This document shows positions 3,753 through 62,446 of a stretch of 64,000 nucleotides of DNA, in pieces. Source of the stretch: Frigoribacterium sp. Leaf263. GTDB taxonomy: Bacteria; Actinomycetota; Actinomycetes; Actinomycetales; Microbacteriaceae. The stretch spans positions 511,297 to 575,296 of the forward strand of contig NZ_LMMO01000003.1 of the NCBI RefSeq assembly GCF_001422285.1, in the 5' to 3' direction. How positions within the stretch are numbered: position 1 is the stretch's first letter; each line of letters begins with the position of its first letter. A program made the position numbers and the translations under genes. The notes beneath the pieces are model-generated. The model did no database searches. It was not told the origin of the DNA and was given only the letters and a program-made list of their open reading frames with translations.

Positions 3753-4625
3753 ATGTCGTCCGCCGAACCCCCGCCCCGTCTCACGATCCAGCTCCCGGTC
3801 GTCCCGCGTGCGCCGGCGACCCGGTCGCCCCCGGTGGCCAGCGCCGCTGCCGCCGCCCTCGCCTCGGTCGTGGGCACCGCGCTCTGGTCGGGCTCGGCCG
3901 CCCAGGCCATGACGGCGGCGCTCGGCGTCGTCTGCGCGATCCTCGCCCTCTGGGGCATCGACGGCCTGGTCGGCTCGCCGTCACGGGCCCGTCGTGAGCG
4001 GCGTCGGTTCGACGACGACATGCGGGCGACCGCGACGACTCTGCACGACCTCCACCGACGAGAACGGGCGGAGCTGCGCAGCCGGTTCCCCGGCAGCGCG
4101 GCGGTGGCCAGGGCCGCTCGGGCGCGTACCGACGCGACGTCCGGTGCGCTGACGACCCGCGCCTCCTCGGCCGGCCCCCAGCTCGTGCTCGGCCGGGGCG
4201 AGGTCGCGAGTGCGGTCGTGCCGCTGCCGATCCGGGCGCCCGAGGCGAGCGAGGGTCGTGACGGGCGAGGTGGCGTCGACGTCGAGGCCGAGGCGGCCCG
4301 CGCTCGACTCTCCGCCGCGGCGTCGGTCCTCGACGACGCGCCGCTCTGCGTCGAGGCGCGCGGTCTCGTCGGCGTCGTCGGGCCCGTCCCGCTCGCCCGT
4401 GCAGCCGCCTCGGGGTACCTGCTGCAGGCGCGGCGCTCGCGGGCCGACCGGCTGGAGGTGATGTACGCGGCGGACCTCGACGCCGTGAGCGGCGCCGACG
4501 TGATCATCGAGATCGCCCTCGACGCCTCGGCCGAGGTGACGCGACGAGCCGGGCGACCGTGTCGCGTGCCCGTCGACCTCGACTACGTGTCCGTGCTCGA
4601 CGTCGTCGACCGACGACCCGCGTGA
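3753..4625 (+). CDS. Hypothetical protein resembling the N-terminal part of EccC/EssC (FtsK-type) secretion ATPases, without ATPase domains
   Basis: 290 aa. Two hydrophobic stretches (about 29-48 and 51-70) are followed by a charged helix (RRERRRFDDDMR) and then an LGRGEV segment. The order of membrane hairpin, R/E-rich helix and short beta-rich domain resembles the region before the FtsK ATPase modules in type VII secretion EccC/EssC proteins. No Walker A or B motif is present and the gene ends where those modules would start, so it cannot be an ATPase itself. It follows the FHA gene by about 140 bp on the same strand. It could be a stand-alone accessory protein or the remnant of a larger gene. 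The homology is judged by eye and is tentative. Confidence 0.45.
   Translation: MSSAEPPPRLTIQLPVVPRAPATRSPPVASAAAAALASVVGTALWSGSAAQAMTAALGVVCAILALWGIDGLVGSPSRARRERRRFDDDMRATATTLHDLHRRERAELRSRFPGSAAVARAARARTDATSGALTTRASSAGPQLVLGRGEVASAVVPLPIRAPEASEGRDGRGGVDVEAEAARARLSAAASVLDDAPLCVEARGLVGVVGPVPLARAAASGYLLQARRSRADRLEVMYAADLDAVSGADVIIEIALDASAEVTRRAGRPCRVPVDLDYVSVLDVVDRRPA
4154..4170 (-). repeat. Copy of the dispersed GAGGAGGCGCGGGTC word
   Basis: The + strand carries GACCCGCGCCTCCTCGG, the exact 17-mer complement, inside the EccC-like gene, where it is read as Thr-Arg-Ala-Ser-Ser. Confidence 0.8.
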
Positions 4626-4646
4626 TGCCCGGGCGCGGCCTGAGCG

Positions 4647-5699
4647 TCAGCCCCGCCGGCCCACCAGCTCGTCGGAGAGCCGGATGCGTCCCACGTCGCG
4701 TCCCGCACCCAGCACGCGCTCGCGGGTCGCCTCGACGACGGCCTCCGCCGCGTCCGCGTCGACCGCGCCCTGACCGACGAGGAGATGCAGCGCCACCATC
4801 GTCGCGGCCCGGAGGTTCCCGTCGAGCATCTTGACGGCCGTCCCGATGCCGTCCACCGTGCCCATGACAAGCACGCCCTCGGCACCGAGCTTGGCGAACA
4901 CGCCCAGCTCGTCGATCGCGACCGTGTTCGCCCGCCCCGGGCCGTCGATGGCCCACGCGTCCGCCAGCACCGCCTCGACGAGGGCGCGAGCGTCCGGGTC
5001 CACGGCGGTCGGGGCGCCGGAAGTCGCTCCGAGCGCGCCGGCCGCACCCGCGACGGTCGCCACCGCTCGCGCGAGCCCGGTGATGGTCGTGTCGAACACC
5101 GGTGCGCCGCATCCGTCGACCCCCGCGTGATCGATCCGCTCGCCGGTGAACTCGGCGACGGTCTCGCGCGCCGCCCGCTGCAGCGGGTGGTCGAGATCGG
5201 TGTAGTTCGTCGGGTCCCAGCCGTTCTCGGCGCACGCGAGGAGGAACGCCGCGTGCTTCCCGGAGCAGTTCATGGCCATGCGCCGCGCTCCCTCGGCACG
5301 ACGGGCGCTCGCGCGGTCGCCGGGCCAGTCGGGCGGGCAGAGCAGGTCCTCCTCGCCGCTGCCCGACCGCTCGAGCAGGGCCGAGACGACCTGCAGATGC
5401 TCGGCGGTGCCGGCGTGGCTCGCGGTGGCCAGAACGGCCTGCGGCCCGCTCAGGGCGACGCCCGAGCGCATGACCGTGAGGGCCTGCAGGGGCTTGAGGC
5501 ACGACCGCGGGTAGATGGACGCGCCCACGTCGCCGACCTCGCGGAGGACCGAGCCGGCGGCGTCGACGACCACGCCGGCTCCGAGATGACGGCTCTCGTC
5601 GAGACCCGATCGCGTCAGCACGGCCAGCTCGACGCTCCCGTCGACCGTCAGCGGGCGGCGGGCGGCGGACGATGGCTCGAGGAGGCGCGGGTCGGTCAT
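4647..5699 (-). CDS. L-asparaginase II family protein
   Basis: 350 aa. The start at 5699 is supported by a -10 box (TACACT) 7 nt upstream, giving a leaderless mRNA and the sequence MTDPRLLEP. The protein matches the thermolabile asparaginase family (PF06089; Rhizobium etli type), which hydrolyses L-asparagine to aspartate and ammonia. It has the typical SIYPRSCLKPLQ segment near residue 60, the MNCSGKHAAFL motif in the middle, and a VDGCGAPVF block. No signal peptide is seen, so it is cytoplasmic. It converges on the EccC-like gene with only 21 bp between stops and is divergent from the OsmC gene. The dispersed repeat word lies within its first ten codons. Family call is firm. Confidence 0.85.
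   Translation of the reverse strand: MTDPRLLEPSSAARRPLTVDGSVELAVLTRSGLDESRHLGAGVVVDAAGSVLREVGDVGASIYPRSCLKPLQALTVMRSGVALSGPQAVLATASHAGTAEHLQVVSALLERSGSGEEDLLCPPDWPGDRASARRAEGARRMAMNCSGKHAAFLLACAENGWDPTNYTDLDHPLQRAARETVAEFTGERIDHAGVDGCGAPVFDTTITGLARAVATVAGAAGALGATSGAPTAVDPDARALVEAVLADAWAIDGPGRANTVAIDELGVFAKLGAEGVLVMGTVDGIGTAVKMLDGNLRAATMVALHLLVGQGAVDADAAEAVVEATRERVLGAGRDVGRIRLSDELVGRRG
5678..5695 (+). repeat. Copy of the dispersed GAGGAGGCGCGGGTC word
   Basis: Exact 15-mer GAGGAGGCGCGGGTC on the + strand, within the first codons of the asparaginase gene (read there as Asp-Pro-Arg-Leu-Leu-Glu). Confidence 0.8.
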
Positions 5700-5706
5700 G
5701 ATGGGG

Positions 5707-5712
5707 AGTGTA
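5707..5712 (-). promoter_or_regulatory. -10 element of the asparaginase gene (leaderless)
   Basis: TACACT on the minus strand, 7 nt from the ATG at 5699. Spacing places the transcription start at or next to the start codon. Confidence 0.55.
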
Positions 5713-5744
5713 CCGAGACCGTCGGCACCGACCGAGGAGGACCC

Positions 5745-6233
5745 ATGCTCGACCACGACTACGCCGTCGACCTGCGCTGGACGGGCGCCCGCGACGTCGG
5801 CACCGTCTCGTACCGGTCGTACGGGCGGGACAACACGCTGAGCGCCGCCGACAAGCGGCACGACATCGAGGCATCCGCCGACCGCACCTTCCACGGCGAT
5901 GCGGATCGCTGGAACCCCGAGGAGCTGCTCCTGGGGGCTCTGGCCCAGTGCCACCTCCTCAGCTACCTCCACGTCGCCGCGACCGCCGGGGTCGTCGTCG
6001 TCGCCTACGAGGACGCCGCCGTCGGACGCATGACGCAGACCGCCGACGGCGGCGGGCGGTTCACCTCCGTCACGTTGCGCCCCGTGGTCACCGTGGCCGC
6101 CGCCGAGATGGTCGACCGCGCGCTCGAGCTGCACGCCGAGGCGGCCCGGAAGTGCTTCATCGCCTCGTCGGTGGCGTTCCCCGTGGGGCACGAGCCCCGC
6201 ATCGCGGTCGCCGACTCCGCGCAGACCGACTGA
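5745..6233 (+). CDS. OsmC family peroxide-resistance protein
   Basis: 162 aa from ATG 5745, which has a strong GAGGAGG ribosome-binding site at 5734-5740. It shows the OsmC/Ohr fold signatures: an N-terminal beta region, LLLGALAQCHLLSYLHVA carrying the first Cys, and a second conserved Cys in ARKCFIASSV near the C terminus. These two cysteines are the peroxidatic and resolving residues of thiol-dependent organic hydroperoxide reductases. Cytoplasmic. It is divergent from the asparaginase gene. The sequence looks closer to the YhfA/OsmC-like branch than to Ohr, so the preferred substrate is uncertain. Confidence 0.85.
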   Translation: MLDHDYAVDLRWTGARDVGTVSYRSYGRDNTLSAADKRHDIEASADRTFHGDADRWNPEELLLGALAQCHLLSYLHVAATAGVVVVAYEDAAVGRMTQTADGGGRFTSVTLRPVVTVAAAEMVDRALELHAEAARKCFIASSVAFPVGHEPRIAVADSAQTD

Positions 6234-6977: not shown

Positions 6978-8000
6978 GTGACCGACACGACCGAGACGAC
7001 CCGCGCCTCCTCGACCCGCGCCTCCCGGCTCCGACGGGGTCGTGTCCCGGCGCTCGTGTGCGTGCCCATCGCCGCGCTGCTGCTGGCGGGCTGCACGACC
7101 GACGCCGACCCGGCGCCGACCGATGCCCCCTCCGTCTCGGCGACTCCGACGACGTGTCTCGAACCGGGTGCCGAGTCCGACTCCGTCCGGGTCTCGGGCG
7201 GCTTCGGCGAGAAGCCCTCCATCGAGCTCGCCGCGCCGCTGGCCGCCGAGACGAGTCAGCAGACGGTGGTCGTCGCGGGAAAGGGCCCGTCGACCGAGGT
7301 CGGCGACGTCGTCCGCGTGGCGATCACCGTCTTCGACGCGGAGTCCGGTGCGGAGCTCAGCACCGCCGGGTACACGGGCGACTCGGGTGAGCAGCTGACC
7401 ATCAGCGGGCAGTTCTACGTCCCGGGGATCGAAGGCGCGCTCTCGTGCGCCCGGGCCGGTTCGCGCACCGTGACGGTCGCGTCCGCCGCGGACATGCAGC
7501 CGGCCACCCCGGGGACGGCTGCGCCCAACCCGGCGGCCGTCATCGTCGTCGACACCTTCTCCCTCGTGCCGACGAGCGCCACGGGCGAGCCCCAGGCCGC
7601 CGTCGAGGGCTTCCCCGAGGTGACGCTCGCCGACGACGGCCGACCCACCGTGACCATCCCCGACGCCGACCCGCCGACCGACCTCCGGATCGAGGTGCTG
7701 AAGAAGGGCGACGGCGAGGTCGTGCCCGATCCGGCGAACGTCACCGTGCAGTACCAGGGGGTCACCTGGCGGACGGGCGAGGTCTTCGACGAGAGCTGGG
7801 GACGCGGCAGCGTCGCCTCGTTCTCGACCGACCAGGTCGTGTCGGGGTTCGCCGAGGCGATGATCGGGCAGACGGTCGGCTCGCAGGTCGTCGTGATCGT
7901 GCCCCCGGCCGACGGGTACGGCGACGCGGGGGAGCCGGGCGCCGAGATCGAGCCCACCGACACCCTGGTGTTCGTGATCGACATCCTCGCCGTCGCCTAG
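6978..8000 (+). CDS. FKBP-type peptidyl-prolyl isomerase lipoprotein with two FKBP-like domains
   Basis: 340 aa from GTG 6978. A basic N terminus precedes a signal with lipobox LLAGC (Cys39). The first half (about 65-190) looks like a divergent FKBP domain (GDVVRVAITVFDAESGAEL, VPGIEGALSCARAGSRTVT). The second half (about 215-340) is a canonical FKBP domain closely matching the upstream lipoprotein, including PPADGYGDAG and TLVFVIDILAVA. It is presumably an extracytoplasmic foldase. The first domain probably lacks activity because its loop residues are not conserved. Codons 5-11 contain the dispersed repeat word (read Thr-Arg-Ala-Ser-Ser), which lengthens the cytoplasmic part of the signal. 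Confidence 0.85.
   Translation: MTDTTETTRASSTRASRLRRGRVPALVCVPIAALLLAGCTTDADPAPTDAPSVSATPTTCLEPGAESDSVRVSGGFGEKPSIELAAPLAAETSQQTVVVAGKGPSTEVGDVVRVAITVFDAESGAELSTAGYTGDSGEQLTISGQFYVPGIEGALSCARAGSRTVTVASAADMQPATPGTAAPNPAAVIVVDTFSLVPTSATGEPQAAVEGFPEVTLADDGRPTVTIPDADPPTDLRIEVLKKGDGEVVPDPANVTVQYQGVTWRTGEVFDESWGRGSVASFSTDQVVSGFAEAMIGQTVGSQVVVIVPPADGYGDAGEPGAEIEPTDTLVFVIDILAVA
6998..7013 (-). repeat. Copy of the dispersed GAGGAGGCGCGGGTC word
   Basis: GACCCGCGCCTCCTCG on the + strand, followed directly by a second partial copy (GACCCGCGCCTCCC, 7013-7026), in the N-terminal codons of the second FKBP lipoprotein. Confidence 0.75.
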
Positions 8001-11766: not shown

Positions 11767-11808
11767 CGAGGAGGCGCGGCGCGGCGAGAGCCGCACCGCG
11801 CCTCCTCG
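11767..11808 (+). terminator. Hairpin terminator after ispG, built from two copies of the dispersed word
   Basis: CGAGGAGGCGCGG (11767-11779) pairs perfectly with CCGCGCCTCCTCG (11796-11808), a 13-bp stem with a 16-nt loop. No T-tract follows, as is common in high-GC actinobacteria. Confidence 0.65.
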
Positions 11809-18144: not shown

Positions 18145-18148
<4 letters not shown>

Positions 18149-19209
18149 CCCCGGTCGTGTTCGATCCCGTGCTGCCCGTCGGCGTGCTGATCGTCGCCGC
18201 GGCCGTGCTCGGCGGTTTCGCGGTCTGGCGGCTCGTGGCCGAGCGCCGGAGTCCCCGCCTCAGGGCGGCGTGGGCGCGGCGGACGGCCGTGGTCGTGCTG
18301 CTGCTCGTCATCGCCGCACGCCCCGGGGTGCCCGGCGGCTCGTCGCCCGCGTCGGCGGCGGATCTCAACGTCTTCTTCGTCGTCGACACGACCTCGAGCA
18401 TCGCGGCGGAGGACTGGGGGGACGGCGCCCCTCGTCTGGACGGCGTGCGTGCCGACGTGGCCTCCGTGACGGAGCAGCTGGCGGGCGCCCGCTTCTCGCT
18501 CATCTCCTTCGACAGCTCGGCCGTGCTGCGGACGCCGCTGACGGACGACGCGTCGGCGCTCCTCACCGCCGCCCGGGTGATGAACCGCGAGATCACCTAC
18601 TACTCGTCGGGCAGCTCCATCAGCGAGGCGAACGACCTCCTCGCCGAGCGGTTGTCCGAAGCGCGCGAGACCGACCCCGGACGGGCGAACGTCGTCTACT
18701 ACCTGGGCGACGGCGAGCAGACGGCCGACGAGGACCCCGGGTCCTTCGCCGCCGCGGCGGATGACGTCGACGGGGGAGCGGTGCTGGGCTACGGCACCGC
18801 CGAGGGCGGCCGCATGAAGGTCTTCGACGGCTACGGCGACGACTACTCGACCGACGAGTACATCGTCGACCGCACCCGGGCCGGTTCGCCCGAGGCGGTG
18901 TCCCGCATCGACGAGGAGGCGCTCCGGACGATCGCGGACCAGCTCGGCGTTCCCTACGTACACCGCGAGGCCGACACCCCGGTCGACGCCGCGGTGGCCG
19001 ATGCTCGCGACGGCCGCGTGGTCTCGACCGACGCGCGCGCGGAGAGCGTCACCGAGCTCTACTGGCTCGCCGCGGTGCCCCTCGTCGTCCTGGTGCTCCT
19101 CGACGTCCTGCTCGTGCTGCGGGCGCTCGGGGAGATCCGGCCGGCCCGGGGCGACGGATCGTCCCGCGCCTCCTCGGCTCCGCGCTCGGCGGATCGGGCA
19201 CGGTCGTGA
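18145..19209 (+). CDS. VWA-domain membrane protein (BatB-like)
   Basis: 354 aa from GTG 18145 (overlap GTGA). TM helices lie at about 10-30 and 44-62, then a VWA domain (about 74-290) with DTTSS at the MIDAS position (D-x-T-x-S instead of D-x-S-x-S), and a C-terminal TM (about 295-320) with a basic tail. It is the second VWA protein of the operon and probably pairs with the first on the outer face. Its last residues contain a near copy of the dispersed word (19162-19176, read Ser-Arg-Ala-Ser-Ser). It overlaps the next gene by 4 bp. Confidence 0.85.
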
Positions 19210-21863: not shown

Positions 21864-21913
21864 CCGACGACCCGCGCCTCCTCGGTCCCGGCCCAGGAGG
21901 CGCGGGTCGTCGG
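21864..21913 (+). terminator. 19-bp stem terminator after proS, made of an inverted pair of the dispersed word
   Basis: CCGACGACCCGCGCCTCCT (21864-21882) pairs perfectly with its complement at 21895-21913; loop of 12 nt. The left arm contains an exact 17-mer copy of the dispersed word, the right arm a copy with one change. No T-tract. Confidence 0.75.
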
Positions 21914-26358: not shown

Positions 26359-26901
26359 ATGGTTGACGCGCAACGCGCCCGCAAGATGGCGGACCGCATC
26401 CAGGAGATCGTCGCCCGGCGTCTCGAACGCGGCATCAGAGACCCCCGTCTCGGATTCGTCACGATCACCGACGTCAAGGTGACCGGTGACCTCCAGCACG
26501 CCTCGATCTTCTACACGGTCTACGGCACGGACGAGGAGCGCCGCGACACCGGCGCGGCCCTCAAGTCCGCGACCGGCATGCTCCGCAGCGAGGTCGGCAA
26601 GAACATCACCGCCCGGCTGACCCCGAGTCTCGAGTTCATCCTCGACGCCCTGCCCGAGAACGCCGCCTCGATCGACCGACTCCTGCAGGAGGCGCGACAG
26701 CGCGATCACGAGAGCCAGACGATGGCCTCGTCCGCCGAGTTCGCCGGCGAGGCGGACCCGTACGTCAAGCCCCGTGATCTCGACGCCGACGATCTGGACG
26801 ATGACGATCTGGACGGGGACGACCCCCGCGACGAGCACCCTGCGGTCGACGCGGCGAGTTCGGGCGACGACCTCGCGGAGCCGGACGGCTCGACCCGCTA
26901 G
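26359..26901 (+). CDS. rbfA: Ribosome-binding factor A
   Basis: 180 aa from ATG 26359 with AAGGAG upstream. The KH-like RbfA domain occupies about 1-115 (RARKMADRIQEIVARRLERGI, DPRLGFVTITDVKVTGDLQHASIF, LRSEVGKNI, TPSLEFILD). A strongly acidic tail with Asp-Asp-Leu repeats ends the protein. It is needed for late 30S maturation and cold adaptation. The stop overlaps the mutY stop on the other strand by 4 bp. Confidence 0.94.
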   Translation: MVDAQRARKMADRIQEIVARRLERGIRDPRLGFVTITDVKVTGDLQHASIFYTVYGTDEERRDTGAALKSATGMLRSEVGKNITARLTPSLEFILDALPENAASIDRLLQEARQRDHESQTMASSAEFAGEADPYVKPRDLDADDLDDDDLDGDDPRDEHPAVDAASSGDDLAEPDGSTR

Positions 26902-27767
26902 TCGGGAAGGCGGTAGCCCTCGTCGGGCGAACCCGCGGCGAGACCGTCGCGGAGGAGCCCGGCGAGGGCTCTGTCGCGCTGGAGCGGCTCCGGCCAGACG
27001 GCGTCGATCTCCTTCTTCGTCACGGGTACGTCGCTCGCGCGCAGCTCGGCCATGATGAGCCCCCTGACCTGCCGATCGGATCCGGCGAAGCGCGCCTGAC
27101 CAGGGAGGCGCGGGCCGACATGGGCCGGACGGCCCGCTGCCACCCAGGCGCACTGTGCGAGCAGAGGGCACGCGTCGCACGAGGGGGAGCGGGCGGTGCA
27201 GACGAGTGCCCCGAGCTCCATGACTCCTGCGCTGGCGACCCGCGCCTCCTCGGCGTCGTCGGGAAGCTGGCTCTCCATCAGCGGCAGGTCCCGGGAGGCC
27301 TTGGGCGCCCAGGGTTCGGCGAGTCCCTCGACCGCTCGGGCGAGGACTCGTCGGACGTTCGTATCGACGACGGGGTGCCGGTGGCCGTACGCGAACACGG
27401 CGACCGCCCGCGCCGTGTAGTCGCCGACGCCCGGCAGGGCGAGCAGCGACGGGACGTCCTCGGGGACGACGCCGCCGTGGCGCTCGGTGATCGCCACGGC
27501 CGCCGCGTGAAGCGCCAGCGCCCGACGGGGGTAGCCGAGGCGATCCCAGGCCCGCACCGCCTCCGACGCGGGGGAGGCCGCGAGGTCCGCCGGCCGGGGC
27601 CAGCGGTCGAGCCATCGTTCGAGACGCGGGACCACGCGCACCACGGGCGTCTGCTGCAGCATGACCTCGCTGACCAGCGTGCCCCAGGCCGGGAACCCCG
27701 GCCGGCGCCACGGCAGATCGCGCCTGTTGACGGTGAACCAGTCGCTGACGGCGGGGGAGATGCTCAC
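26898..27767 (-). CDS. mutY: A/G-specific adenine glycosylase
   Basis: 289 aa from GTG 27767, placed by a leaderless -10 box. Catalytic Glu34 lies in SEVMLQQT. The helix-hairpin-helix is LPGVGDYTARAVAVF (about 109-123), followed by VVDTNV carrying the catalytic Asp, and a complete [4Fe-4S] loop C-x6-C-x2-C-x5-C (about 199-215). The C-terminal Nudix-like 8-oxoG recognition domain of E. coli MutY is absent or very short, as in many actinobacteria. It removes A paired with 8-oxoG. The dispersed word sits in the middle (read Glu-Glu-Ala-Arg-Val). Confidence 0.92.
   Translation of the reverse strand: MSISPAVSDWFTVNRRDLPWRRPGFPAWGTLVSEVMLQQTPVVRVVPRLERWLDRWPRPADLAASPASEAVRAWDRLGYPRRALALHAAAVAITERHGGVVPEDVPSLLALPGVGDYTARAVAVFAYGHRHPVVDTNVRRVLARAVEGLAEPWAPKASRDLPLMESQLPDDAEEARVASAGVMELGALVCTARSPSCDACPLLAQCAWVAAGRPAHVGPRLPGQARFAGSDRQVRGLIMAELRASDVPVTKKEIDAVWPEPLQRDRALAGLLRDGLAAGSPDEGYRLPD
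27237..27253 (-). repeat. Copy of the dispersed GAGGAGGCGCGGGTC word
   Basis: Exact 17-mer GACCCGCGCCTCCTCGG on the + strand inside mutY. Confidence 0.8.
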
Positions 27768-39195: not shown

Positions 39196-39239
39196 GGCCG
39201 CCCCCTCGACCCGAGGAGGCGCGGGTCGAGGGGGCGGCC
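39196..39239 (-). terminator. 18-bp stem terminator after the zinc dehydrogenase, containing the dispersed word
   Basis: 39196-39213 pairs perfectly with 39222-39239 around an 8-nt loop. The 17-mer CCGAGGAGGCGCGGGTC (39211-39227) spans the loop and right arm. It lies 16 bp past the dehydrogenase stop on the minus strand. Confidence 0.75.
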
Positions 39240-44982: not shown

Positions 44983-45014
44983 AGACTATGCGGGGCGGGG
45001 TTGCATCAGGTTGC
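44983..45014 (-). promoter_or_regulatory. Candidate promoter and activator site of the aldehyde dehydrogenase operon
   Basis: On the minus strand a TAGTCT -10 box (44983-44988) lies downstream of a direct repeat read on the + strand as GGTTGC-ATCA-GGTTGC (44999-45014), which covers the -35 region. It may be the site for the GAF regulator. Inferred from position. Confidence 0.3.
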
Positions 45015-46289
45015 GATCGCGTCGCGGCGGCCGGAGAGCGCCTCGAGGCGCGCGACGACCCCGGCGCGGCGGGGCGAGTGCGGGGCCAGCCGCCGCAGCA
45101 GCTCGAGCAGCACGGTCTCGTCGTCATGACCGGTGGGGGCCTCGGCGAAGGCGGTGAGCGCGTCGGTCGAGCCCGCCGCCAGCACGGCGTCGCGGAGCCC
45201 GGCCCGCGCCTCCGCCCGGAGCTCGACGACTCCCGGCGCGGTCGACGACGGCAGCACCGGTCCCCGGTCGGCCCGCACGGCCGCGCGATGCGAACCCCGG
45301 CCCAGGAGCGCGGCGAGGTCGTGGAGGTCGAGGGCCACGGGCCGGGGCAGCCGGTAGGGGCGCGACAGGGGGACGAGCGTCGGATCGACGGACTCGACGA
45401 CATGCCGCAGCCGCACCATCTCGGGGCGCAGCGTCGTGACGGCGTCGACGTCGCCGTAGACGGCGTCCGCGAGGTCGGCGGCCCGGTACCCCTCGGGTCG
45501 GTGCGCCAGCAGCAGCAGGATCTCGGAGTGCCGGGCGCTCAGCACCGTGCGCCGTCCGCCGACGGAGAGCACGGCCTCGTCACGGCCGAGCGCGGCCAGG
45601 CGCGCCGGCGCGGGCGTGCTCTCGGGCGCGAGTGCGAGCTCGCGTGCGGTGCGACGGGGAGCCGAGGAGGCGCGGGTCGACCCGCCGGCGACCGCCGCCG
45701 CCCTCGAGAGCGCGAGGTGCGCCTCCATCGCCGCGACCGTCGCCCGGACCAGGGGCAGGGTCTGCGACCCCGCGGCCCGGGCGTCGCCCGTGATGTCGAC
45801 GACCCCGAGGAGGCGCCCGTCGACGGGATCGTGGACGGGCACGGCCGTGCAGCACCAGGCCTGGACGCGATGATTCCAGTGCTCCTCGCCGCGGATCTGC
45901 ACGCCTCGGTCGAGTTCGAGCGCCGTGCCGGGAGCGGACGTGCCGACCCGCGCCTCCGACCATCCGGCTCCGGCGACGAACAGCATGCTCTCGGCCTGCC
46001 GTCGCGCCGACGAGTCGCCCTCGACCCAGAGCAGTCGGCCGTGCTCGTCGCCGACCGCGACGAGCAGACCCGAGCCCTCGGCGTCGTCGACGAGCAGACG
46101 TCGGAGGACGGGGAGGACGAGGGCGAGCGGATGACCGCGCCGCCACGCCTCGAGGTCGTCCTCCGGAAGCTCGAGGCGGGGGAGCTCGTCGGGGTCGAGG
46201 CGGTGCCCGGCCGCCCGGCCCCACGACTCGCGGACGACCCGTCGCAGGGGCACGCCTCCTGCGGGGCCGGGGCTCGTCACGAGCGTCAT
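45006..46289 (-). CDS. GAF-domain transcriptional regulator (AcoR-like sensor)
   Basis: 427 aa. An N-terminal sensor region (about 1-190) has a GAF-like fold typical of acetoin/aldehyde-responsive regulators (RRVVRESWGRA, LLWVEGDSSARRQAESMLFVAGAGWSEARVGTSAPGTALEL, WCCTAVPVHDPVDGRLLGVVDITG). A winged-helix-like DNA-binding part follows (LSARHSEILLLLAHRPEGYRAADLADAVYGD, about 250-280). There is no sigma-54 AAA+ domain. It lies upstream of the aldehyde dehydrogenase operon on the same strand and probably activates it. The dispersed word falls in the linker. Confidence 0.8.
   Translation of the reverse strand: MTLVTSPGPAGGVPLRRVVRESWGRAAGHRLDPDELPRLELPEDDLEAWRRGHPLALVLPVLRRLLVDDAEGSGLLVAVGDEHGRLLWVEGDSSARRQAESMLFVAGAGWSEARVGTSAPGTALELDRGVQIRGEEHWNHRVQAWCCTAVPVHDPVDGRLLGVVDITGDARAAGSQTLPLVRATVAAMEAHLALSRAAAVAGGSTRASSAPRRTARELALAPESTPAPARLAALGRDEAVLSVGGRRTVLSARHSEILLLLAHRPEGYRAADLADAVYGDVDAVTTLRPEMVRLRHVVESVDPTLVPLSRPYRLPRPVALDLHDLAALLGRGSHRAAVRADRGPVLPSSTAPGVVELRAEARAGLRDAVLAAGSTDALTAFAEAPTGHDDETVLLELLRRLAPHSPRRAGVVARLEALSGRRDAIAT
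45662..45680 (+). repeat. Copy of the dispersed GAGGAGGCGCGGGTC word
   Basis: CCGAGGAGGCGCGGGTCGA on the + strand, in the linker of the GAF regulator (read Thr-Arg-Ala-Ser-Ser). A one-mismatch copy follows at 45804-45821. Confidence 0.8.
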
Positions 46290-47774: not shown

Positions 47775-47814
47775 GACCCGCGCCTCCTCGGCTCCCGGCT
47801 CCGCGCCTCCTCGG
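47775..47814 (-). repeat. Two neighbouring copies of the dispersed word in intergenic DNA
   Basis: GACCCGCGCCTCCTCGG at 47775-47791 and CCGCGCCTCCTCGG at 47801-47814 on the + strand, in the gap between the TraR/DksA-like and mannonate-dehydratase-like genes. Confidence 0.8.
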
Positions 47815-49339: not shown

Positions 49340-52300
49340 TCAGGCTCCGGCGTCGTCCGAGCCGACGCCGACGCCGACCCCCGAGGAGGCGCGGGTGGCG
49401 CTCCACTCCCGCCACATCGTCTTGAGATCCCAGGCGTCGTCGGCCTCGAGCGAGATGCCGCGCTCGCCGGTGCGACGCGTGCGGCCCTTGATCACCATGA
49501 GCCGGGTGCCGAAGAGCAGCGACCCCGCACGCTGCTGGGCCTCGTCGAAGAACGTCGAGTCGGAGACGCCGCTGCCGTCGTCGAGGCTGATGAAGACGAC
49601 GCGCCGACCGCTGCGCATCGGCGGGGTCTGGGTGGCGATGCGGATGCCCGCCACGAGCACCGTGGTGCCGTTCCAGTGGTCGCGCAGGTCGGCGGCCCGG
49701 ACCACCCCGAGATCGTCGAGCATGGGCCGGTAGCTCTCGATGACGTGCTCGCTGACCTCCATCGAGAGGATGTCGAGCTCGGCGCTCACGCGGTCTCGGA
49801 TGCCGACGTCGGGGGTGCCGGTGGGCACGGTGTCGGAGTCGTCGATGGCGAAGTCGAGCTGGTTCTCGACGTCCACCGCCCGTGGCCGCGTCGCCCGGCC
49901 GGTCAGCGCCCGCACCCGGGCCAGCACGTCGCCGCGGGTCCGGTCGGGTCCGGCGAGCGAGTCGAGGGCCCCGACCTGCGCGAGTCGCTCGAACAGGGAT
50001 CTCGACGGCGTCGCCCGCTGCCAGAAGTCGGTGATGGACTCGTACGGGCGGCCGACGACGACCCGGGCGAGCTCGGCGTCGCTGATGCCGTGCACGTCGG
50101 CGAGCGACAGACGGATGCCCAGGTCGCCCGTGCGGGTCGGGGCGATCGGGGTGGCCGGAGGGCGCAGCCGCTCGACCTGGTAGACGTCGGTCGAGGCGTT
50201 GACGTCGAGCGGCAGCACCGGGATGCCCATCCGCCGCGCCTCGGTCAGCAGCAGCCTCTTCGGGTACATCCCCGGGTCGTGGGTGAGGACGCCGGCGAGG
50301 AACTCGGCCGGGTAGTGCGTCTTCAACCAGGCGCTCTGATAGGTGGGCAGAGCGAACGCCGCACCGTGCGCCTTGCAGAACCCGAACGAGCCGAACCCCT
50401 TCAGCACGGCCCAGACGCGGTCGATGTCGGCATCGGTGTATCGACGACGCCCGGTCTCGGGGTCGACGTTGGCCCGGGTGCGTGCCCTGAACGTCGACTC
50501 GAGGGCGTCGTCGTCGCCCTTGCCCATGTGCCGTCGGATCTCGTCGGCCTCGGCGAGGCTGACCTGCATCGTGGCCTCGAGGATCCGCAGGACGTGCTCG
50601 TGGTAGATCACGACGCCGTAGCTGTCGTCGAGGAACGACGCGAAGCTCGGGTGCACGTAGTCGGGGTGCTGGAACCCGTGCTTCGTGTCGAGGAACGGGG
50701 CGATCATGTTGCCCTTCATCGGGCCGGGGCGGAACAGCGAGATGTCGGCGATGAGATCGGAGTAGCGGTCGGGCTGCATCTTGCCGATCAGCTCGCGTTG
50801 CCCCGGGCTCTCGATCTGGAACATGCCGAGGGTGTGCGTGGTGCGGATGGAGGCGAACGTCGGCTCGTCGTCATGGGGGATCTCGTCGAGCTCGATGCGC
50901 CCCTGGCGGTCGACGTACCGGGCGTCGACGGGCAGCGCCCCCGCCACCGCGGCCCTCGAGCCGTTGACCCGCTCGATCTCGTCGAGGGCGTACGCCAGCG
51001 AGCTCTGCATGCGGACACCCAGCACGTCGAGCTTCAGCAGCCCGGCGTCGTTCATGTCGTGCTTGTCGAACTGGCTCATCGGCAGACCGATTCCGCTCGG
51101 CTGGACGGGGGTCATGCTGAGCAGGTCGGAGTCGCCGAGGATCACCCCGCACGGGTGCATCGAGATGTGCCGAGGCAGTCGGTCGAGCCGCTCGCTGAGA
51201 TCGACGAGCAGGTCGATCTGCCGGTCGCTGCGCGCCAGCTCGGCGATCTCGCGCAGCTCGGGCTTCTCGGCCAGGGCCGTGCGCAGGTCTCGGGCGTTCG
51301 AGCGCCAGACGTTCTTGGCGACGAGATCGATCTGCTCGTCGTCGAGACCGAGGGCCAGACCGGCGTCGCGCACCGCGCCCCTGCCTCGGTAGGTCGACTG
51401 CATCGACATCAGCGTCACGCGGTTGCTGCCGTAGCGGTCGAAGATCGCCCGGTAGACCTCGTGCCTCCTCGCCGACTCCACGTCGATGTCGATGTCGGGC
51501 AGGGTCTCCCTCTTGTTGCCGAGGAACCTCTCGAACAGCAGGTCGTGCTCGATCGGATCGACGTTGGAGATCCGCAGCAGATAGGTGACGAGGCTGCCGG
51601 CCCCCGAGCCGCGAGCGGCGTTCCGGACCCTCATCTCGCGCATGAGCCTCGACACGTCGGCCACGGTCAGGAAGTACCCGGCGAACCCGAACCCGGTGAT
51701 GATGCCGAGCTCGTAGCGCATGCGCTCCTCGACCTTCTCGCGCAGTTCGCGCCCCGCATCGCCGAACCGCTCGGTGACACCGGCCTCGGCCCGACGGAAC
51801 AGCACCTGATCGGGGTCGCCGTCGACGCCCACGGCGCTCGGCTCGGGGACCTTCGGGCGACCCCAGCCGAGATCGGCGGCCGGATCGAGCCGGCACCGGT
51901 CGGCCAGCCTCTCGGTCGCCGACAGCATCTCGTCGGCGGCGCTGCGGGGCAGGGAGGAGGCGTCGGTCACCATCCGCGCGATGCCGCGCATCTCGCCGGC
52001 CCCCTTCAGGTGCGCCTGAGCGTTCGGCTGCGGACGGAAGCTGCCGAGAGCGGCGAGATGACCGGCCGAGTCGAGGACGTCGGCGGTGACCGCCTCGTCG
52101 GAGTCGAGATACCGCACGGCGTTGGTCAGCACGGCCGGCACCCCGACATGATCGGCCAGCTCGAGCATGCGGGCGGCGTGTCGGATGCTGCGGCTCTCGC
52201 CCGGCTCGGTCAGATGGCAGACGACCTCGACCACGACCCCTCCGGGCAGCATCGCCGCCCAGTCCGTCAACGCCGCCGCCGCCTCCGTGTGCCGACCCGC

Positions 52301-52789
52301 CTGCACCAGTCTGCCCACGTCGGAGTCGGGGCCGAGCAGCACCGTCGCCGCCGGCCCGGAGTCTCCTTGGACGAAAGCCCTGACCCTCGACCGGCCGATC
52401 GTCGCCACGCTGTTCGCGCTGCCGCTCGCCTTCTTCGTCGCCCGCCCGTGCGCGGCGCTGATCAGGCGGCAGAGGGCCGCCCACCCCGCCCCCGCCGGTC
52501 CGCCGTCGACCGCCCCGTGAGCGAGCACGACGATCCGCTCGACCGTCGAGCCCTCCGGGGCGGCGCCCGGCCGGTCGTCGCGGCACCCGAGCTCGACGCC
52601 GACGATGGGGTCGACGCCCGCCGCCCGGCACGCCCCGATGTGCCGGATCGCCCCGTAGAGGCCGTCTCGGTCGGTGATGGCGGCCGCGTCGGCCCCGCGT
52701 TCGGCGACGGCGTCGACGAGGGTCTTCGGATGGGCCGTGCCGTAGTGGGCGCTGAACGCCGACGCGACGCGCAGATGGGTGAAACGCAT
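49340..52789 (-). CDS. dnaE2: Error-prone DNA polymerase III alpha subunit
   Basis: 1149 aa from ATG 52789. PHP domain at the N terminus (THLRVASAFSAHYG, AITDRDGLYG), polymerase palm with the catalytic PDIDIDVESARR, then the tau-binding-type and OB regions. The PHP metal-ligand pattern and length fit DnaE2/ImuC rather than replicative DnaE1. It performs damage-induced mutagenesis with ImuA' and ImuB. A perfect LexA box overlaps its promoter. imuA' and imuB, normally just upstream, are not in the window, while DUF6504 lies 6 kb away. Confidence 0.92.
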   Translation of the reverse strand: MRFTHLRVASAFSAHYGTAHPKTLVDAVAERGADAAAITDRDGLYGAIRHIGACRAAGVDPIVGVELGCRDDRPGAAPEGSTVERIVVLAHGAVDGGPAGAGWAALCRLISAAHGRATKKASGSANSVATIGRSRVRAFVQGDSGPAATVLLGPDSDVGRLVQAGRHTEAAAALTDWAAMLPGGVVVEVVCHLTEPGESRSIRHAARMLELADHVGVPAVLTNAVRYLDSDEAVTADVLDSAGHLAALGSFRPQPNAQAHLKGAGEMRGIARMVTDASSLPRSAADEMLSATERLADRCRLDPAADLGWGRPKVPEPSAVGVDGDPDQVLFRRAEAGVTERFGDAGRELREKVEERMRYELGIITGFGFAGYFLTVADVSRLMREMRVRNAARGSGAGSLVTYLLRISNVDPIEHDLLFERFLGNKRETLPDIDIDVESARRHEVYRAIFDRYGSNRVTLMSMQSTYRGRGAVRDAGLALGLDDEQIDLVAKNVWRSNARDLRTALAEKPELREIAELARSDRQIDLLVDLSERLDRLPRHISMHPCGVILGDSDLLSMTPVQPSGIGLPMSQFDKHDMNDAGLLKLDVLGVRMQSSLAYALDEIERVNGSRAAVAGALPVDARYVDRQGRIELDEIPHDDEPTFASIRTTHTLGMFQIESPGQRELIGKMQPDRYSDLIADISLFRPGPMKGNMIAPFLDTKHGFQHPDYVHPSFASFLDDSYGVVIYHEHVLRILEATMQVSLAEADEIRRHMGKGDDDALESTFRARTRANVDPETGRRRYTDADIDRVWAVLKGFGSFGFCKAHGAAFALPTYQSAWLKTHYPAEFLAGVLTHDPGMYPKRLLLTEARRMGIPVLPLDVNASTDVYQVERLRPPATPIAPTRTGDLGIRLSLADVHGISDAELARVVVGRPYESITDFWQRATPSRSLFERLAQVGALDSLAGPDRTRGDVLARVRALTGRATRPRAVDVENQLDFAIDDSDTVPTGTPDVGIRDRVSAELDILSMEVSEHVIESYRPMLDDLGVVRAADLRDHWNGTTVLVAGIRIATQTPPMRSGRRVVFISLDDGSGVSDSTFFDEAQQRAGSLLFGTRLMVIKGRTRRTGERGISLEADDAWDLKTMWREWSATRASSGVGVGVGSDDAGA
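49381..49397 (+). repeat. Near copy of the dispersed word
   Basis: CCGAGGAGGCGCGGGTG, one change from the 17-mer, in the last codons of dnaE2 (read Thr-Arg-Ala-Ser-Ser). Confidence 0.65.
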
Positions 52790-55915: not shown

Positions 55916-55935
55916 CTAGGAGGCGCGGGTCGACC
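55916..55935 (+). repeat. Copy of the dispersed word at the end of the GH15 gene
   Basis: TAGGAGGCGCGGGTCGACC, one base off the 15-mer, provides the last codons and stop of the GH15 gene (read Ser-Thr-Arg-Ala-Ser-stop). Confidence 0.7.
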
Positions 55936-57703
55936 GGGCGAGCGCGATCGCGTCCGCCGCCCGCACGAGCGCCAGGTGCGACAGCGCCTGAGGGGTGTTC
56001 CCGACGTGGCGGCCGGTCGCCACCTCGATCTCCTCCGAGAGCATGCCCACGTCGTTGCAGTAGCCGACCAGGCGGTCCATGAGGACGACCGCGTCGTCCA
56101 GGCGACCCGAGGCCGCGTACTGCTCGACGAGCCAGAACGAGCAGGTGAGGAACGGGTTCTCGGTGCCCTCCAGCCCGTCGACGCCGCTCTCCGTCCGGTA
56201 GCGCAGCAGCAGGCCGTCGTGCAGGAGGTCGCGCTCGATCGCGGCGACGGTGCCCAGCATGCGGGGGTCGTCGGCTTCGACGAAGCCCACCTGCGCGAGC
56301 TGCAGCAGCGACGCGTCGACCTCGGTGGTGTCGTAGTGCTGGGTGAACGTGCCGAGCTCGGCGTTCCAGCCGTGATCCTCGATGTCGGCCCTCACCTCGT
56401 CGCGGAGCGCTCGCCATCGGTCAACGGGGCCGTCCAGGCCGAACTGCTCGACGCCCTTGATGCCGCGGTCGAGGGCGGCCCAGATCATCACCCGCGAATG
56501 GGTGAAGTGCCGCACCTCGCCGCGGATCTCCCAGATGCCGCTGTCGGGTCGTGACCGGTTGTCGTCGACGTACTGCAGGAGGGCCCGCTGCAGAGGCCAC
56601 GAGTACTCGTTCTCGTCGACCCCGAGGAGGCGCGCCTCGTGGAGTGCGATCATCACCTCTCCGAAGATGTCGCCCTGGTACTGCCGGTAGGCGCCGTTGC
56701 CCACCCGGACGGGGGAGGCGCCTCCGTAGCCGGGGAGGCCGTCGATCTCGCTCTCGTGGAGGTACCGCTCGCCCGCGAGGCCGTACATGATCTGGACGTC
56801 GGCGGGGTCTCCGGCAATCGCCCGCAGCAGCCAGCCACGCCATCGTTCCGCCTCCTCCGCGTAGCCGTGCAGGATGAGCGCCTGGAGGGTCATCGAGGCA
56901 TCGCGGAGCCACACGTAGCGGTAGTCCCAGTTGCGCGACCCGCCGAACTGCTCGGGCAGACTCGTCGTGGCCGCGGCGACGATCCCGCCGGTGTCCTCGT
57001 TCGTCAGCGCGCGGAGGATGAGCAGCGATCGTCGCACCTCGCGCTCGTAGGCGGGAGGAGCGGTGCAGCGCGCGGCCCAGTCACGCCACCAGGCGGTGGT
57101 CTCGGCGATCCGGGCGTCCACGTCGATCGGCGTGGGCGGCGTGCGGTGCGAGGGGTACCACGTGAGGGTGAGATCGACGACGTCGCCGGCGGAGACGTCG
57201 AACCCGGCCTCGTGGGTGTGGTCGGTGGCGGTCAGCCGCGGACCGCGGACGACGACCGCGTCGGGCCCGGCCGTCGCGACCAGGGCGGTGCCGTCCGCCT
57301 CGACGACCTGTCTGACCCAGGGCATGGCGCTGCCGTACCCGAAGCGGATGGCGAGATCGACCCGCATGGGCACCGTCCCGGAGATGCCGGTGACCCGACG
57401 GACGACGTCGGCCCGTCGGTCGCCGAAGGGCATGAGGTCCGTCACCTCGACGACGCCGGTCGGCGTCCGCCAGCGGGTGACGAGCACGAAGGTGTCGTCG
57501 AGGTAGCTCCGGGTGGCGGTCGCCGCGGCGTCGGAGGGGGCGACCAGCCACCGGCCGGCGTCGTGGTCGCCGAGGAGCGCCCCGAACGTCGAGGCGGAGT
57601 CGAAGCGCGGCAGGCACAGCCAGTCGATGCTGCCGTCGGTGCCGACGAGGCATCCGGTGTGCAGATCACCGATCAGGGCGTAGTTCTCGATGGGCAGGGG
57701 CAT
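55916..57703 (-). CDS. Glycoside hydrolase family 15 protein (glucoamylase/trehalase-like)
   Basis: 595 aa from ATG 57703; an upstream ATG at 57715 is less likely because it overlaps the -10 box. MPLPIENYALIGDLHTGCLVGTDGSIDWLCLPRFDS is typical of the N terminus. The (alpha/alpha)6 barrel signatures NWDYRYVWLRDASMTLQAL (catalytic Glu/Asp region) and GIWEIRGEVRHFTHSRVMIWAALDRG follow. The family includes actinobacterial trehalases and glucoamylases; trehalose is the more probable substrate. Cytoplasmic. Convergent with zwf. Confidence 0.88.
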   Translation of the reverse strand: MPLPIENYALIGDLHTGCLVGTDGSIDWLCLPRFDSASTFGALLGDHDAGRWLVAPSDAAATATRSYLDDTFVLVTRWRTPTGVVEVTDLMPFGDRRADVVRRVTGISGTVPMRVDLAIRFGYGSAMPWVRQVVEADGTALVATAGPDAVVVRGPRLTATDHTHEAGFDVSAGDVVDLTLTWYPSHRTPPTPIDVDARIAETTAWWRDWAARCTAPPAYEREVRRSLLILRALTNEDTGGIVAAATTSLPEQFGGSRNWDYRYVWLRDASMTLQALILHGYAEEAERWRGWLLRAIAGDPADVQIMYGLAGERYLHESEIDGLPGYGGASPVRVGNGAYRQYQGDIFGEVMIALHEARLLGVDENEYSWPLQRALLQYVDDNRSRPDSGIWEIRGEVRHFTHSRVMIWAALDRGIKGVEQFGLDGPVDRWRALRDEVRADIEDHGWNAELGTFTQHYDTTEVDASLLQLAQVGFVEADDPRMLGTVAAIERDLLHDGLLLRYRTESGVDGLEGTENPFLTCSFWLVEQYAASGRLDDAVVLMDRLVGYCNDVGMLSEEIEVATGRHVGNTPQALSHLALVRAADAIALARSTRAS

Positions 57704-60580: not shown

Positions 60581-60600
60581 CACCCCTCCGAAAACCGATT

Positions 60601-60650: not shown

Positions 60651-60665
60651 AAGAGAAGGCCCGCG

Positions 60666-61706: not shown

Positions 61707-61712
61707 GCGCCC

Positions 61713-61718
61713 ATCCTG
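61713..61718 (-). promoter_or_regulatory. -10-like element of the App1 gene (leaderless)
   Basis: CAGGAT on the minus strand, 6 nt before the ATG at 61706. It departs from TANNNT at the first base. Confidence 0.4.
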
Positions 61719-61723
61719 TCACG

Positions 61724-62446
61724 TCAGAGGGGCTCGACGAGGGAGGGGGAGTCGGTGCCCACCGAGCCGACGGCGGGCGAGACCTCGTGGGACGTCGTGC
61801 GCCCGGCGATCTCGGGCGACAGCCCCGCGACGCCCTCGACGAGATCGGCGTCGCCCTCGGTCTCGGGGTCGAGCCAGTCGTCCATCACGTCGGCCCCGAC
61901 GAAGACCGGCATGCGGTCGTGCAGCGAGGCGAGCGGACCCGAGGAGGCGCGGGTCAGGATCGTCGTCGACAGCAGCCACCGGGACGGCGCGTCGGGTGCC
62001 GCTCGAGGGTCCCGCCACCATTCGTAGAGCGCGGCGAAGAGCATCACCTCGTCGTCGGGGAGGTGGACGAGGTGGGGGTGCCTGACCCCGGCCGAGTCGG
62101 TCGTCCACTCGTAGTACCCCGTGGCGGGGACCAGCCCCCGACGGGCGGCGACGGCCTCGCGGAACATCGGCTTCGCGGCCGCCGTCTCGGACCGGGCGTT
62201 GATCACGGGCGCGCCCTCGGGTCCGGCCGAGCCGCCGGGCACGAGGCCCCAGCGGGCGGCCGCGAGACGACGGACGGGCGGGCCGCCGGCGTCGTCGCCC
62301 CGGGGCGCCGCATCGACCAGGAGGTGCACCGGGCGGGTCGGAGCGATATTCCAGGAAGGATCTGGGAGAGTGTCTCCTGATACATCAACGTCGAACAGGG
62401 CCACCAGGTCGCTCGAGGCGCGAGCCATCACGAATCGTCCGCACAT
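61724..62446 (-). CDS. SOS-response-associated peptidase (YedK/HMCES family)
   Basis: 240 aa from ATG 62446, so that catalytic Cys2 follows the initiator Met (MCGRFVMA). The SRAP signatures WNIAPTRPVHLL, RWGLVPGG, INARSETAAAKPMFREAV and CRRGL-like RRGLVPATGYYEW are complete; the LHDRMPVFV segment supplies the conserved His. It forms a covalent crosslink to abasic sites in single-stranded DNA. An upstream ATG is less likely. The dispersed word lies in the central part. Confidence 0.92.
   Translation of the reverse strand: MCGRFVMARASSDLVALFDVDVSGDTLPDPSWNIAPTRPVHLLVDAAPRGDDAGGPPVRRLAAARWGLVPGGSAGPEGAPVINARSETAAAKPMFREAVAARRGLVPATGYYEWTTDSAGVRHPHLVHLPDDEVMLFAALYEWWRDPRAAPDAPSRWLLSTTILTRASSGPLASLHDRMPVFVGADVMDDWLDPETEGDADLVEGVAGLSPEIAGRTTSHEVSPAVGSVGTDSPSLVEPL
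61939..61955 (+). repeat. Copy of the dispersed GAGGAGGCGCGGGTC word
   Basis: Exact 17-mer CCGAGGAGGCGCGGGTC on the + strand, read as Thr-Arg-Ala-Ser-Ser in the YedK gene. Confidence 0.8.

What the first reader, a model, noticed from the sequence alone, without database searches (positions are those of the whole stretch)
4154..61955. A 15-17 bp word (GAGGAGGCGCGGGTC) repeated across the window in both orientations, in genes and in terminators
Exact or one-mismatch copies lie at 4154, 5678, 6998, 21869, 21895, 27237, 39211, 45662, 47775, 49381, 55916 and 61939, plus shorter partial copies. By composition alone one would expect far fewer than one in 64 kb. They lie in unrelated genes and are read as different peptides (Thr-Arg-Ala-Ser-Ser, Glu-Glu-Ala-Arg-Val, Asp-Pro-Arg-Leu-Leu-Glu), so selection is on DNA, not protein. 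Both orientations are frequent, which argues against Chi or KOPS polarity. Paired copies form hairpins after genes. This layout is that of DNA-uptake sequences in Neisseria and Haemophilus. I know of no such system described in Microbacteriaceae.
Basis: partly seen in the sequence, partly recalled or inferred. Interest (0 to 1): 0.8.

Follow-up and report, generated by a model that had tools for sequence, protein, structure and literature searches.

The report
Frigoribacterium genome-wide DNA-uptake-like word
A Gram-positive bacterium carries hundreds of copies of one 13-18 letter DNA word scattered through its genes and terminators in both directions, with a one-letter dialect in a sister species, much like the 'self' tags that some Gram-negative bacteria use to pick out DNA of their own kind.

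Summary
All 12 listed copies are there (9 exact, 3 one-mismatch, within 2 bases). In the 3.24 Mb genome the exact 15-mer occurs 266 times (128 forward, 138 reverse; reversed-word control 0). The full consensus, CCGAGGAGGCGCGGGTCG, has 164 perfect copies. All 16 genomes searched of the genus (Frigoribacterium, inferred) have it; of 150 family genomes only this genus and one other exceed background. One species (apparently F. endophyticum) has a second dialect, GGAGTCGCGGGTCG, 108 copies against 0-4 in its 15 congeners. In the own genome 40 of 60 words lie in called genes; intergenic DNA is enriched 3.5-fold. Some form inverted-pair hairpins after genes. No replichore polarity. Orthologous words differ by in-register substitution and are kept more often than codon-permuted controls (pairs p 4e-5; loci only p 0.05). 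No RAYT transposase. comEA-comEC and a Tad locus exist, but ComEC is near-universal in the order. Best reading: a DNA-uptake-sequence-like system, the first I know of in a Gram-positive. Uptake is untested, no receptor is known, and depletion near the terminus leaves a chromosome-organising site as rival.

The parts
4154..4168 (-). exact word, inside called gene 3753-4625 (+)
5679..5693 (+). exact word, inside called gene 4647-6134 (-), poorly conserved stretch
6998..7012 (-). exact word, in tandem with 7013-7027; called gene 6978-8000 (+), near its start
7013..7027 (-). word with exact 13-mer core GGAGGCGCGGGTC, tandem neighbour
11768..11807 (.). inverted pair of variant words (GAGGAGGCGCGGCGC / GAGGAGGCGCGGTGC), within 20 bp after a called gene; strong hairpin, terminator-like
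19161..19175 (-). one-mismatch word in called gene 18145-19209 (+)
21869..21908 (.). inverted pair of words (exact and one-mismatch) about 10 bp after called gene 20159-21859; strong hairpin; the two arms carry matching variants in relatives (GGGTC, GGTGC, GGGCC)
27237..27251 (-). exact word in called gene 26898-27767 (-); core kept in G004 and G006, one mismatch in G010, lost in G007
39213..39227 (+). exact word in an intergenic stretch, inside a hairpin with a 19-bp stem
45664..45678 (+). exact word in called gene 45006-46289 (-)
45945..45959 (-). word with exact 13-mer core in the same gene; kept in G004 and G010, changed in G007, no hit in G006
47775..47812 (-). exact word with a tandem two-mismatch copy, intergenic; no significant fold
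49383..49397 (+). one-mismatch word near the 3' end of called gene 49340-52789 (-); exact in G004, same one-mismatch form in G010
55917..55931 (+). one-mismatch word (exact 13-mer core) at the 3' end of called gene 55916-57703 (-)
61941..61955 (+). exact word in called gene 61724-62329 (-); core kept in all five genomes compared though flanks are 72-91% alike

Best explanation
The word is a genus-specific DNA-uptake-sequence-like signal. Shown: a directional word of about 18 bp (CCGAGGAGGCGCGGGTCG, core AGGAGGCGCGG) lies in hundreds of copies in both orientations in genes and between them, differs between species by in-register substitution, is kept more often than control words, comes in species dialects, and is built into some terminator-like hairpins. 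Inferred: cells competent through ComEA/ComEC and the Tad (Flp) pilus bind or import DNA with the word preferentially; recombination of imported fragments favours alleles that carry it, so words pile up by biased uptake (molecular drive), most where protein and RNA constraints are weak, and drift into dialects when the receptor changes. Which surface protein reads the word is unknown; a Tad minor pilin or ComEA are the obvious candidates.
For: Excess: 266 exact 15-mers and 164 perfect 18-mers, reversed-word controls 0. Range: all 16 genus genomes searched hold 85-447 copies of the 14-mer AGGAGGCGCGGGTC, the other 24 genomes of that search 0-4; of 150 family genomes only the 3 of this genus and the 2 of g47 exceed 4 copies of GGAGGCGCGGGTCG. 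Dialect GGAGTCGCGGGTCG: 108 copies in G006, 0-4 in the 15 other genus genomes. No fork polarity: 54 of 100 co-oriented in complete G007; runs test p 0.32 on 73 sites of own contig 1. Words in genes: 40 of 60 in genes, 23 of them mid-gene, read in several frames. Evolution, named word-selected loci left out and each pair counted once: 47 ortholog pairs, 19 identical, 27 with substitutions, 1 gapped, word identity 89.7% against flanks 84.3%; codon-permuted controls 44 pairs, 2 identical, 78.6% against 85.5% (Fisher on pairs p 4e-5; on loci 7 of 16 against 2 of 18, p 0.052). Little information outside about 18-20 bp. Inverted pairs and hairpins, as described for DUS (PMC3630211 passages). ComEA, ComEC, TadA, T2SSF and TadE matches.
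Against: Uptake was not and could not be tested. ComEC is in 39 of 40 genomes searched, also in those without the word. No receptor found; an alignment of ComEA from five species shows no obvious dialect-linked change. Exact long words are fewer than neisserial 10-mers (266-447 against 943-4265 in the passages), though the 10-mer core GGAGGCGCGG has 204 copies in 464 kb, 48 expected. Words are sparse around the inferred terminus. In sampled G006 and G007 the common-dialect word is mostly intergenic (19 of 35; 8 of 12), and in genus g47 the core is largely a hairpin part. Counted by locus the conservation result is borderline, and many sites had no usable alignment (114 hits dropped for the word, 47 for the control).
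Confidence: 0.58

Rival explanations
1. The word is the binding site of a chromosome-organising or division-regulating protein (working like nucleoid-occlusion sites), spread over the chromosome but kept out of the terminus.
For: Sparse near the inferred terminus in G007; word-poor stretches in own C3 and, for both dialects, in G006; no strand polarity; kept inside genes.
Against: The word is not palindromic, occurs hundreds of times, is built into hairpins, shows a dialect change inside one genus and is absent from other genera; such sites are, from recall, few, often palindromic and slow to change. The sparse region may also reflect fewer core genes or less recombination there.
Confidence: 0.17
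2. It is a family of terminator hairpins or REP-like elements whose stem is the word; single copies are their remnants.
For: In 400 kb of G134 (genus g47) the core forms 14 inverted neighbour pairs, 10 with a 12-13 bp spacer, 12 lying 14-30 bp from the stop of a called gene. In the own genome intergenic and convergent gaps are enriched; in sampled G006 and G007 most common-dialect words are intergenic; three window hairpins are strong.
Against: Only 10 inverted pairs among 181 core words in 400 kb of the own genome, and most words there are single and in genes. Ortholog differences are substitutions, 1 gapped of 47 pairs. RAYT transposase family PF01797 is in 0 of 20 genomes searched, 13 of them of the genus.
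Confidence: 0.13
3. It is a recombination hotspot or segregation signal (Chi- or KOPS-like).
For: Over-represented directional word, also in genes.
Against: No replichore polarity: 54 of 100 co-oriented with the fork, Fisher p 0.42; the word is 13-18 bp, longer than Chi or KOPS words (recalled 5-8 bp); intergenic enrichment.
Confidence: 0.04
4. Chance, composition or codon usage: GC-rich genome with common EARV/TRAS codons.
For: The two commonest readings use common high-GC codons.
Against: Reversed-word control 0 against 266; Markov expectation 0.6 against 73; 0-4 copies outside the genus; 23 codon-permuted words together give 111 sites where the single word gives 181 in the same DNA.
Confidence: 0.005

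Closest known systems
DNA uptake sequence (DUS) and dialects of Neisseriaceae
   Same: Hundreds of copies or more, inside genes and between them, inverted pairs associated with terminators, single-base dialects in related species with minority ('peregrine') copies of other dialects (PMC3630211, passages).
   Different: Sequence unrelated (GCCGTCTGAA there); fewer exact long copies here; Gram-positive host; the only T2SSE ATPase over the cut-off is TadA-like, ComP was not searched for; word sparse near the inferred terminus.
Uptake signal sequence (USS) of Pasteurellaceae
   Same: Dispersed, intragenic; bias to gene termini reported there (PMC2346458, abstract) resembles the 17 of 40 in-gene words near called gene ends here.
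   Different: USS core sequence (recalled) is unrelated; no distant conserved flanks seen here.
REP/BIME elements with RAYT transposases
   Same: Inverted pairs in intergenic hairpins, clearest in genus g47.
   Different: In the own genome most words are single and many are mid-gene; no Y1_Tnp match in 20 genomes.
Natural competence of Micrococcus luteus (ComEA/ComEC and Flp/Tad pilus)
   Same: Same kind of gene set: overlapping comEA-comEC and a tad locus (PMC6370729 and PMC8467076, passages only).
   Different: No uptake word appears in the passages I read; the term 'sequence specificity' does not occur in PMC8467076.
Nucleoid-occlusion sites (Noc, SlmA)
   Same: Spread over the chromosome, depleted at the terminus (recalled for those systems; here).
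   Different: Those sites are palindromic and a few dozen (recalled); this one is directional and in hundreds.

Membership tests
DNA uptake sequence (DUS/USS) system | Short word far over-represented genome-wide in both orientations | tested here: met
   266 exact, 128/138, reversed control 0; 73 against 0.6 expected
DNA uptake sequence (DUS/USS) system | Copies inside genes, reading-frame independent, with intergenic enrichment | tested here: met
   own genome 40 of 60 in genes (own simple gene caller); G006 16 of 35, G007 4 of 12
DNA uptake sequence (DUS/USS) system | Inverted pairs at terminators | tested here: met
   10 pairs, mean 2.8 and largest 9 in 500 random placements; hairpins. A minority of words; termination itself not tested
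DNA uptake sequence (DUS/USS) system | No replication-strand polarity | tested here: met
   54 of 100 co-oriented; runs test p 0.32
DNA uptake sequence (DUS/USS) system | Dialects among related species | tested here: met
   GGAGTCGCGGGTCG in G006; GGGCC variants in G003 and G007; CTGGAGGCGCGG in G134
DNA uptake sequence (DUS/USS) system | Words arise by substitution and are maintained | tested here: inconclusive
   Substitution: 27 of 47 pairs, 1 gapped. Maintenance: 19 of 47 pairs identical against 2 of 44 controls, but 7 of 16 against 2 of 18 loci, p 0.052
DNA uptake sequence (DUS/USS) system | Host has DNA-uptake genes | tested here: met
   comEA, comEC, tad; not discriminating, ComEC in 39 of 40 genomes searched
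DNA uptake sequence (DUS/USS) system | Word increases DNA binding, uptake or transformation | not testable with these tools
   needs experiment
DNA uptake sequence (DUS/USS) system | Dedicated surface receptor for the word | not tested
   no candidate beyond ComEA and Tad pilins; only ComEA was compared across species
Neisserial DUS proper | ComP minor pilin on a type IVa pilus | tested here: inconclusive
   one T2SSE ATPase over the cut-off, TadA-like; no ComP search was run
REP/BIME with RAYT | Y1_Tnp (RAYT) gene in the genome | tested here: not met
   0 of 20 genomes, 13 of them of the genus, own included
REP/BIME with RAYT | Extragenic | tested here: not met
   23 of 60 mid-gene
Chi/KOPS | Polarity along replichores | tested here: not met
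Nucleoid-occlusion type site | Depleted at the terminus | tested here: met
   G007 gap and gradient; terminus taken as the point opposite one dnaA hit
Nucleoid-occlusion type site | Known binding protein present (Noc/SlmA) | not tested

The most novel reading that the evidence does not exclude
A DNA-uptake-sequence system with dialects in a Gram-positive (Actinobacteria), arisen independently of the Gram-negative ones and read by a Tad/Flp pilus or ComEA-type receptor, with word density that follows the ori-ter axis.
Probability: 0.5. Interest if true: 0.92.

Novelty: new variant of a known kind. Interest (0 to 1): 0.8.

Why it matters
As far as I know (recall), sequence-marked self-DNA is established only in Neisseriaceae and Pasteurellaceae, both Gram-negative. 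A third, independent case in a Gram-positive with a Tad pilus would show that the trait evolves repeatedly, would make the old question (adaptive mate choice or by-product of a biased receptor) testable by comparison, and could help to transform this genus in the laboratory. If it is instead a chromosome-organising site, it is one with a fast-changing sequence.

Tried and rejected
Rejected: chance or composition; Chi/KOPS; RAYT-driven REP; mobile insertion (1 gapped of 47 pairs).

Mended on re-checking: the first identity figures (word 93.6%, 92.2%) counted identical pairs from both sides; one search counts each pair once (53 pairs, 20 identical; control 48, 3), but still held 22 named loci that had been fetched because they hold the word, which favours the word; one search leaves these out and is the one I rely on. 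The 'antisense' control is the same set of sites read on the other strand, not a second control.

Led nowhere: papers joining an uptake sequence with Microbacteriaceae, Microbacterium or Curtobacterium, or natural transformation with Frigoribacterium, 0 hits; wider searches gave listings in which I saw no title on such a word in Actinobacteria; Microbacteriaceae with REP gave 2 unrelated titles. ComEA alignment. Scan of viral contigs for AGGAGGCGCGGGTCG: 98 stretches, 80 listed, each with one copy in the stretch held; this looks like background and says nothing on phages of this host. G022's repeated word proved a tandem array.

Limits: genes were called by a simple codon-usage script of mine, which can misplace starts; 14 of 40 in-gene words lie within 150 bp of a called start and may be upstream. 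The genus name is inferred: 22 of the 80 rows listed are Frigoribacterium, and G006 has a contig of 1,588,767 bases, the length of NZ_JAAOYV010000001.1 (F. endophyticum AS3.20). In one search the 4 unlisted G007 sites were placed arbitrarily beyond 3.19 Mb for the gap test, and the own-genome stretches were chosen after seeing the list.
Full report
WHAT IS THERE. In the whole genome (3,243,570 bases, 10 contigs) it occurs 266 times, 128 forward and 138 reverse; the same word read backwards occurs 0 times. The logo from 464 kb (400 kb of contig 1 plus the window) gives CCGAGGAGGCGCGGGTCG, strongest in AGGAGGCGCGG, with little information beyond it; the perfect 18-mer has 164 copies, reversed control 0. 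The 13-mer core has 73 exact, 66 one-mismatch and 208 two-mismatch copies against 0.6, 10.6 and 109.6 expected. The 10-mer GGAGGCGCGG has 204 copies against 48 expected.

WHO HAS IT. In a search of 40 genomes (own included), the 14-mer AGGAGGCGCGGGTC has 85-447 copies in all 16 of the genus and 0-4 in the other 24. In 150 genomes drawn evenly from the family, GGAGGCGCGGGTCG exceeds 4 copies only in the three of this genus (G000 368, G003 183, G007 93; reversed control 1, 0, 0) and in the two of a second genus, g47 (51 and 56). The genus is Frigoribacterium by inference: 22 of the 80 rows listed are Frigoribacterium records, and G006 has a contig of exactly the length of F. endophyticum AS3.20 contig 1.

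DIALECTS. In 400 kb of G006 the top 14-mer is GGAGTCGCGGGTCG, one base from the own word. Genome-wide it has 108 copies in G006 and 0-4 in the 15 other genus genomes; G006 also has 85 copies of AGGAGGCGCGGGTC. Of four T-dialect words in G006 with an ortholog in the DNA held, three lie where G003 has GGAGGCGCGG (flank identity 0.58, 0.66 and 0.85, so only one is a firm alignment). G003 and G007 add GGGCC variants. G134 of genus g47 favours CCTGGAGGCGCGG, often followed by TGCC.

WHERE IN THE GENOME. With a simple gene caller of mine (90.6% coding in 400 kb), the 60 exact 13-mers of own contig 1 divide into 40 in genes and 20 intergenic: 23 mid-gene, 14 within 150 bp of a called start, 3 within 60 bp of a stop, 11 in codirectional, 7 in convergent and 2 in divergent gaps; mid-gene DNA is 72.4%, convergent gaps 1.7%. 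The share in genes differs between species: G006 16 of 35 (common dialect; 34 of 63 with both dialects), G007 4 of 12. In-gene copies are read as EARV, TRAS, GGAGR, DPRL or RPAPP. There are 10 inverted neighbour pairs within 70 bp among 181 core words (mean 2.8, largest 9 in 500 random placements). The window pairs at 11768/11793 and 21869/21894 and the single word at 39213 sit in strong hairpins (z -5.4 to -5.7), the tandem pair at 47775 does not (z -0.7), the in-gene copy at 61941 only weakly (z -2.2). In 400 kb of G134 there are 14 inverted neighbour pairs, 10 with a 12-13 bp spacer and 12 lying 14-30 bp from the stop of a called gene; 25 of its 76 G-core 10-mers are in called genes, where 12.9 are expected over the whole stretch. 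There the core looks mainly like a hairpin part.

STRAND AND POSITION. A runs test on the 73 exact sites of own contig 1 shows no blocks of one orientation (35 runs, 37.5 expected, p 0.32). In the complete genome G007, 100 of the 104 copies were listed; with ori taken at dnaA, C1:218 kb, 54 of 100 point with the fork (Fisher p 0.42). So Chi- or KOPS-like polarity is absent. Density does depend on position: ori-to-ter quartiles 28, 38, 20, 14 (KS p 0.0016), and a 414 kb gap at 1.81-2.22 Mb that includes the point opposite dnaA (largest gap in 5000 random placements never as long; 95% limit 233 kb). In the own genome C3:559-985 kb has 4 perfect 18-mers where 21.5 are expected, and the first 208 kb of the dnaA contig C4 have 22 where 10.5 are expected (chosen after seeing the list). 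G006 lacks both exact dialect words between about 1.04 and 1.30 Mb of C1. I cannot explain this firmly; donor-DNA dosage, fewer core genes near the terminus, or a chromosome-organising role would each do.

HOW WORDS CHANGE. Aligning window words with four relatives shows words kept in place (61941 in all five genomes), changed by substitution, or lying in unalignable stretches. In all unselected Frigoribacterium DNA held (six genomes), 181 sites of the 12-mer GAGGCGCGGGTC gave 47 ortholog pairs, each counted once: 19 identical, 11 with one, 8 with two, 8 with three or more mismatches, 1 gapped; word identity 89.7%, flanks 84.3%. Permutations of the same four codons (111 sites): 44 pairs, 2 identical, 9, 10, 18 and 5 gapped; word 78.6%, flanks 85.5%. 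Fisher p is 4e-5 on pairs, but pairs are not independent; by locus a kept copy is seen in 7 of 16 against 2 of 18, p 0.052. Dropped before the count for short, poor or gappy alignment: 114 hits for the word, 47 for the control. The change by substitution rather than insertion is clear; the extra conservation is likely but rests on few loci. The transposase family behind REP elements, PF01797, is absent in 20 of 20 genomes searched.

UPTAKE MACHINERY. An overlapping comEA-comEC pair lies about 11 kb beyond the right end of the window (L161:11156-14367): ComEA with SLBB and HHH domains, ComEC with Competence and lactamase-B domains (in NCBIfam the domain models TIGR00426 and TIGR00360 pass their cut-offs, TIGR01259 and TIGR00361 do not). 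The only T2SSE ATPase over the cut-off is a TadA-family protein in a tad locus before topA, with T2SSF, DUF4244-type and TadE-type small proteins. Micrococcus luteus transforms with the same kind of set (PMC6370729 and PMC8467076, passages only). ComEC is in 39 of 40 genomes searched, so this shows capacity, not specificity. ComEA of five species is intact with no clear dialect-linked change.

MECHANISM. Most likely the word acts as an uptake sequence: shown are its anatomy, distribution, dialects and mode of change; inferred are recognition at the cell surface, import by Tad/ComEA/ComEC and accumulation by biased uptake and recombination. The passages of PMC3630211 describe the same features for DUS: intragenic copies, inverted pairs associated with terminators, one-base dialects and minority copies of other dialects. 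PMC2346458 (abstract) reports bias to gene ends in Pasteurellaceae. Against a plain transfer of the label: fewer exact long copies, no receptor, sparse terminus, no functional test.

NOVELTY. Searches of an open-access library for uptake sequences with Microbacteriaceae, Microbacterium or Curtobacterium and for natural transformation with Frigoribacterium found nothing; most subscription papers and all preprints are outside it. That uptake sequences are known only from two Gram-negative families is my recall.

Noticed in passing
G016 (L163-L168), G021 (L169-L174), G023 (L212-L216): Other Microbacteriaceae genera have a different dispersed word, CGGATGCCGC(GG) or CGGATGTCGC, in both orientations (39 in 120 kb of G016 against 7.1 expected), rare in the Frigoribacterium DNA held; mostly in called genes.
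   Followed up: partly
G023 (L212-L216): Dispersed repeats GGGTTTCGAGAC and GCGGGTTGAGGA, 12 copies each in 100 kb (0.1 and 0.2 expected); may be arms of an intergenic repeat (pairing not tested).
   Followed up: no
G134 (L237-L256): Palindromic unit GGAGGCGCGGTGCCAGCTGGCACCGCGCCTCC and near-identical forms, mostly within 30 bp of a called stop: a uniform terminator-like hairpin family.
   Followed up: partly
G007:C1:1.81-2.22 Mb; G006:C1:1.04-1.30 Mb; own C3:559-985 kb: Word-poor regions in three species; in G007 it spans the point opposite dnaA.
   Followed up: partly
G022:C1 about 77.76-78.04 kb (L178): Tandem array of a GC-rich unit GCGAGGCGCGGCGCA, not dispersed.
   Followed up: no
G007:C1:343364-343425; G006:C1:325680-325765: Three tandem copies of the word at 24-bp spacing in G007, and three T-dialect copies at 36-bp spacing in G006.
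   Followed up: no
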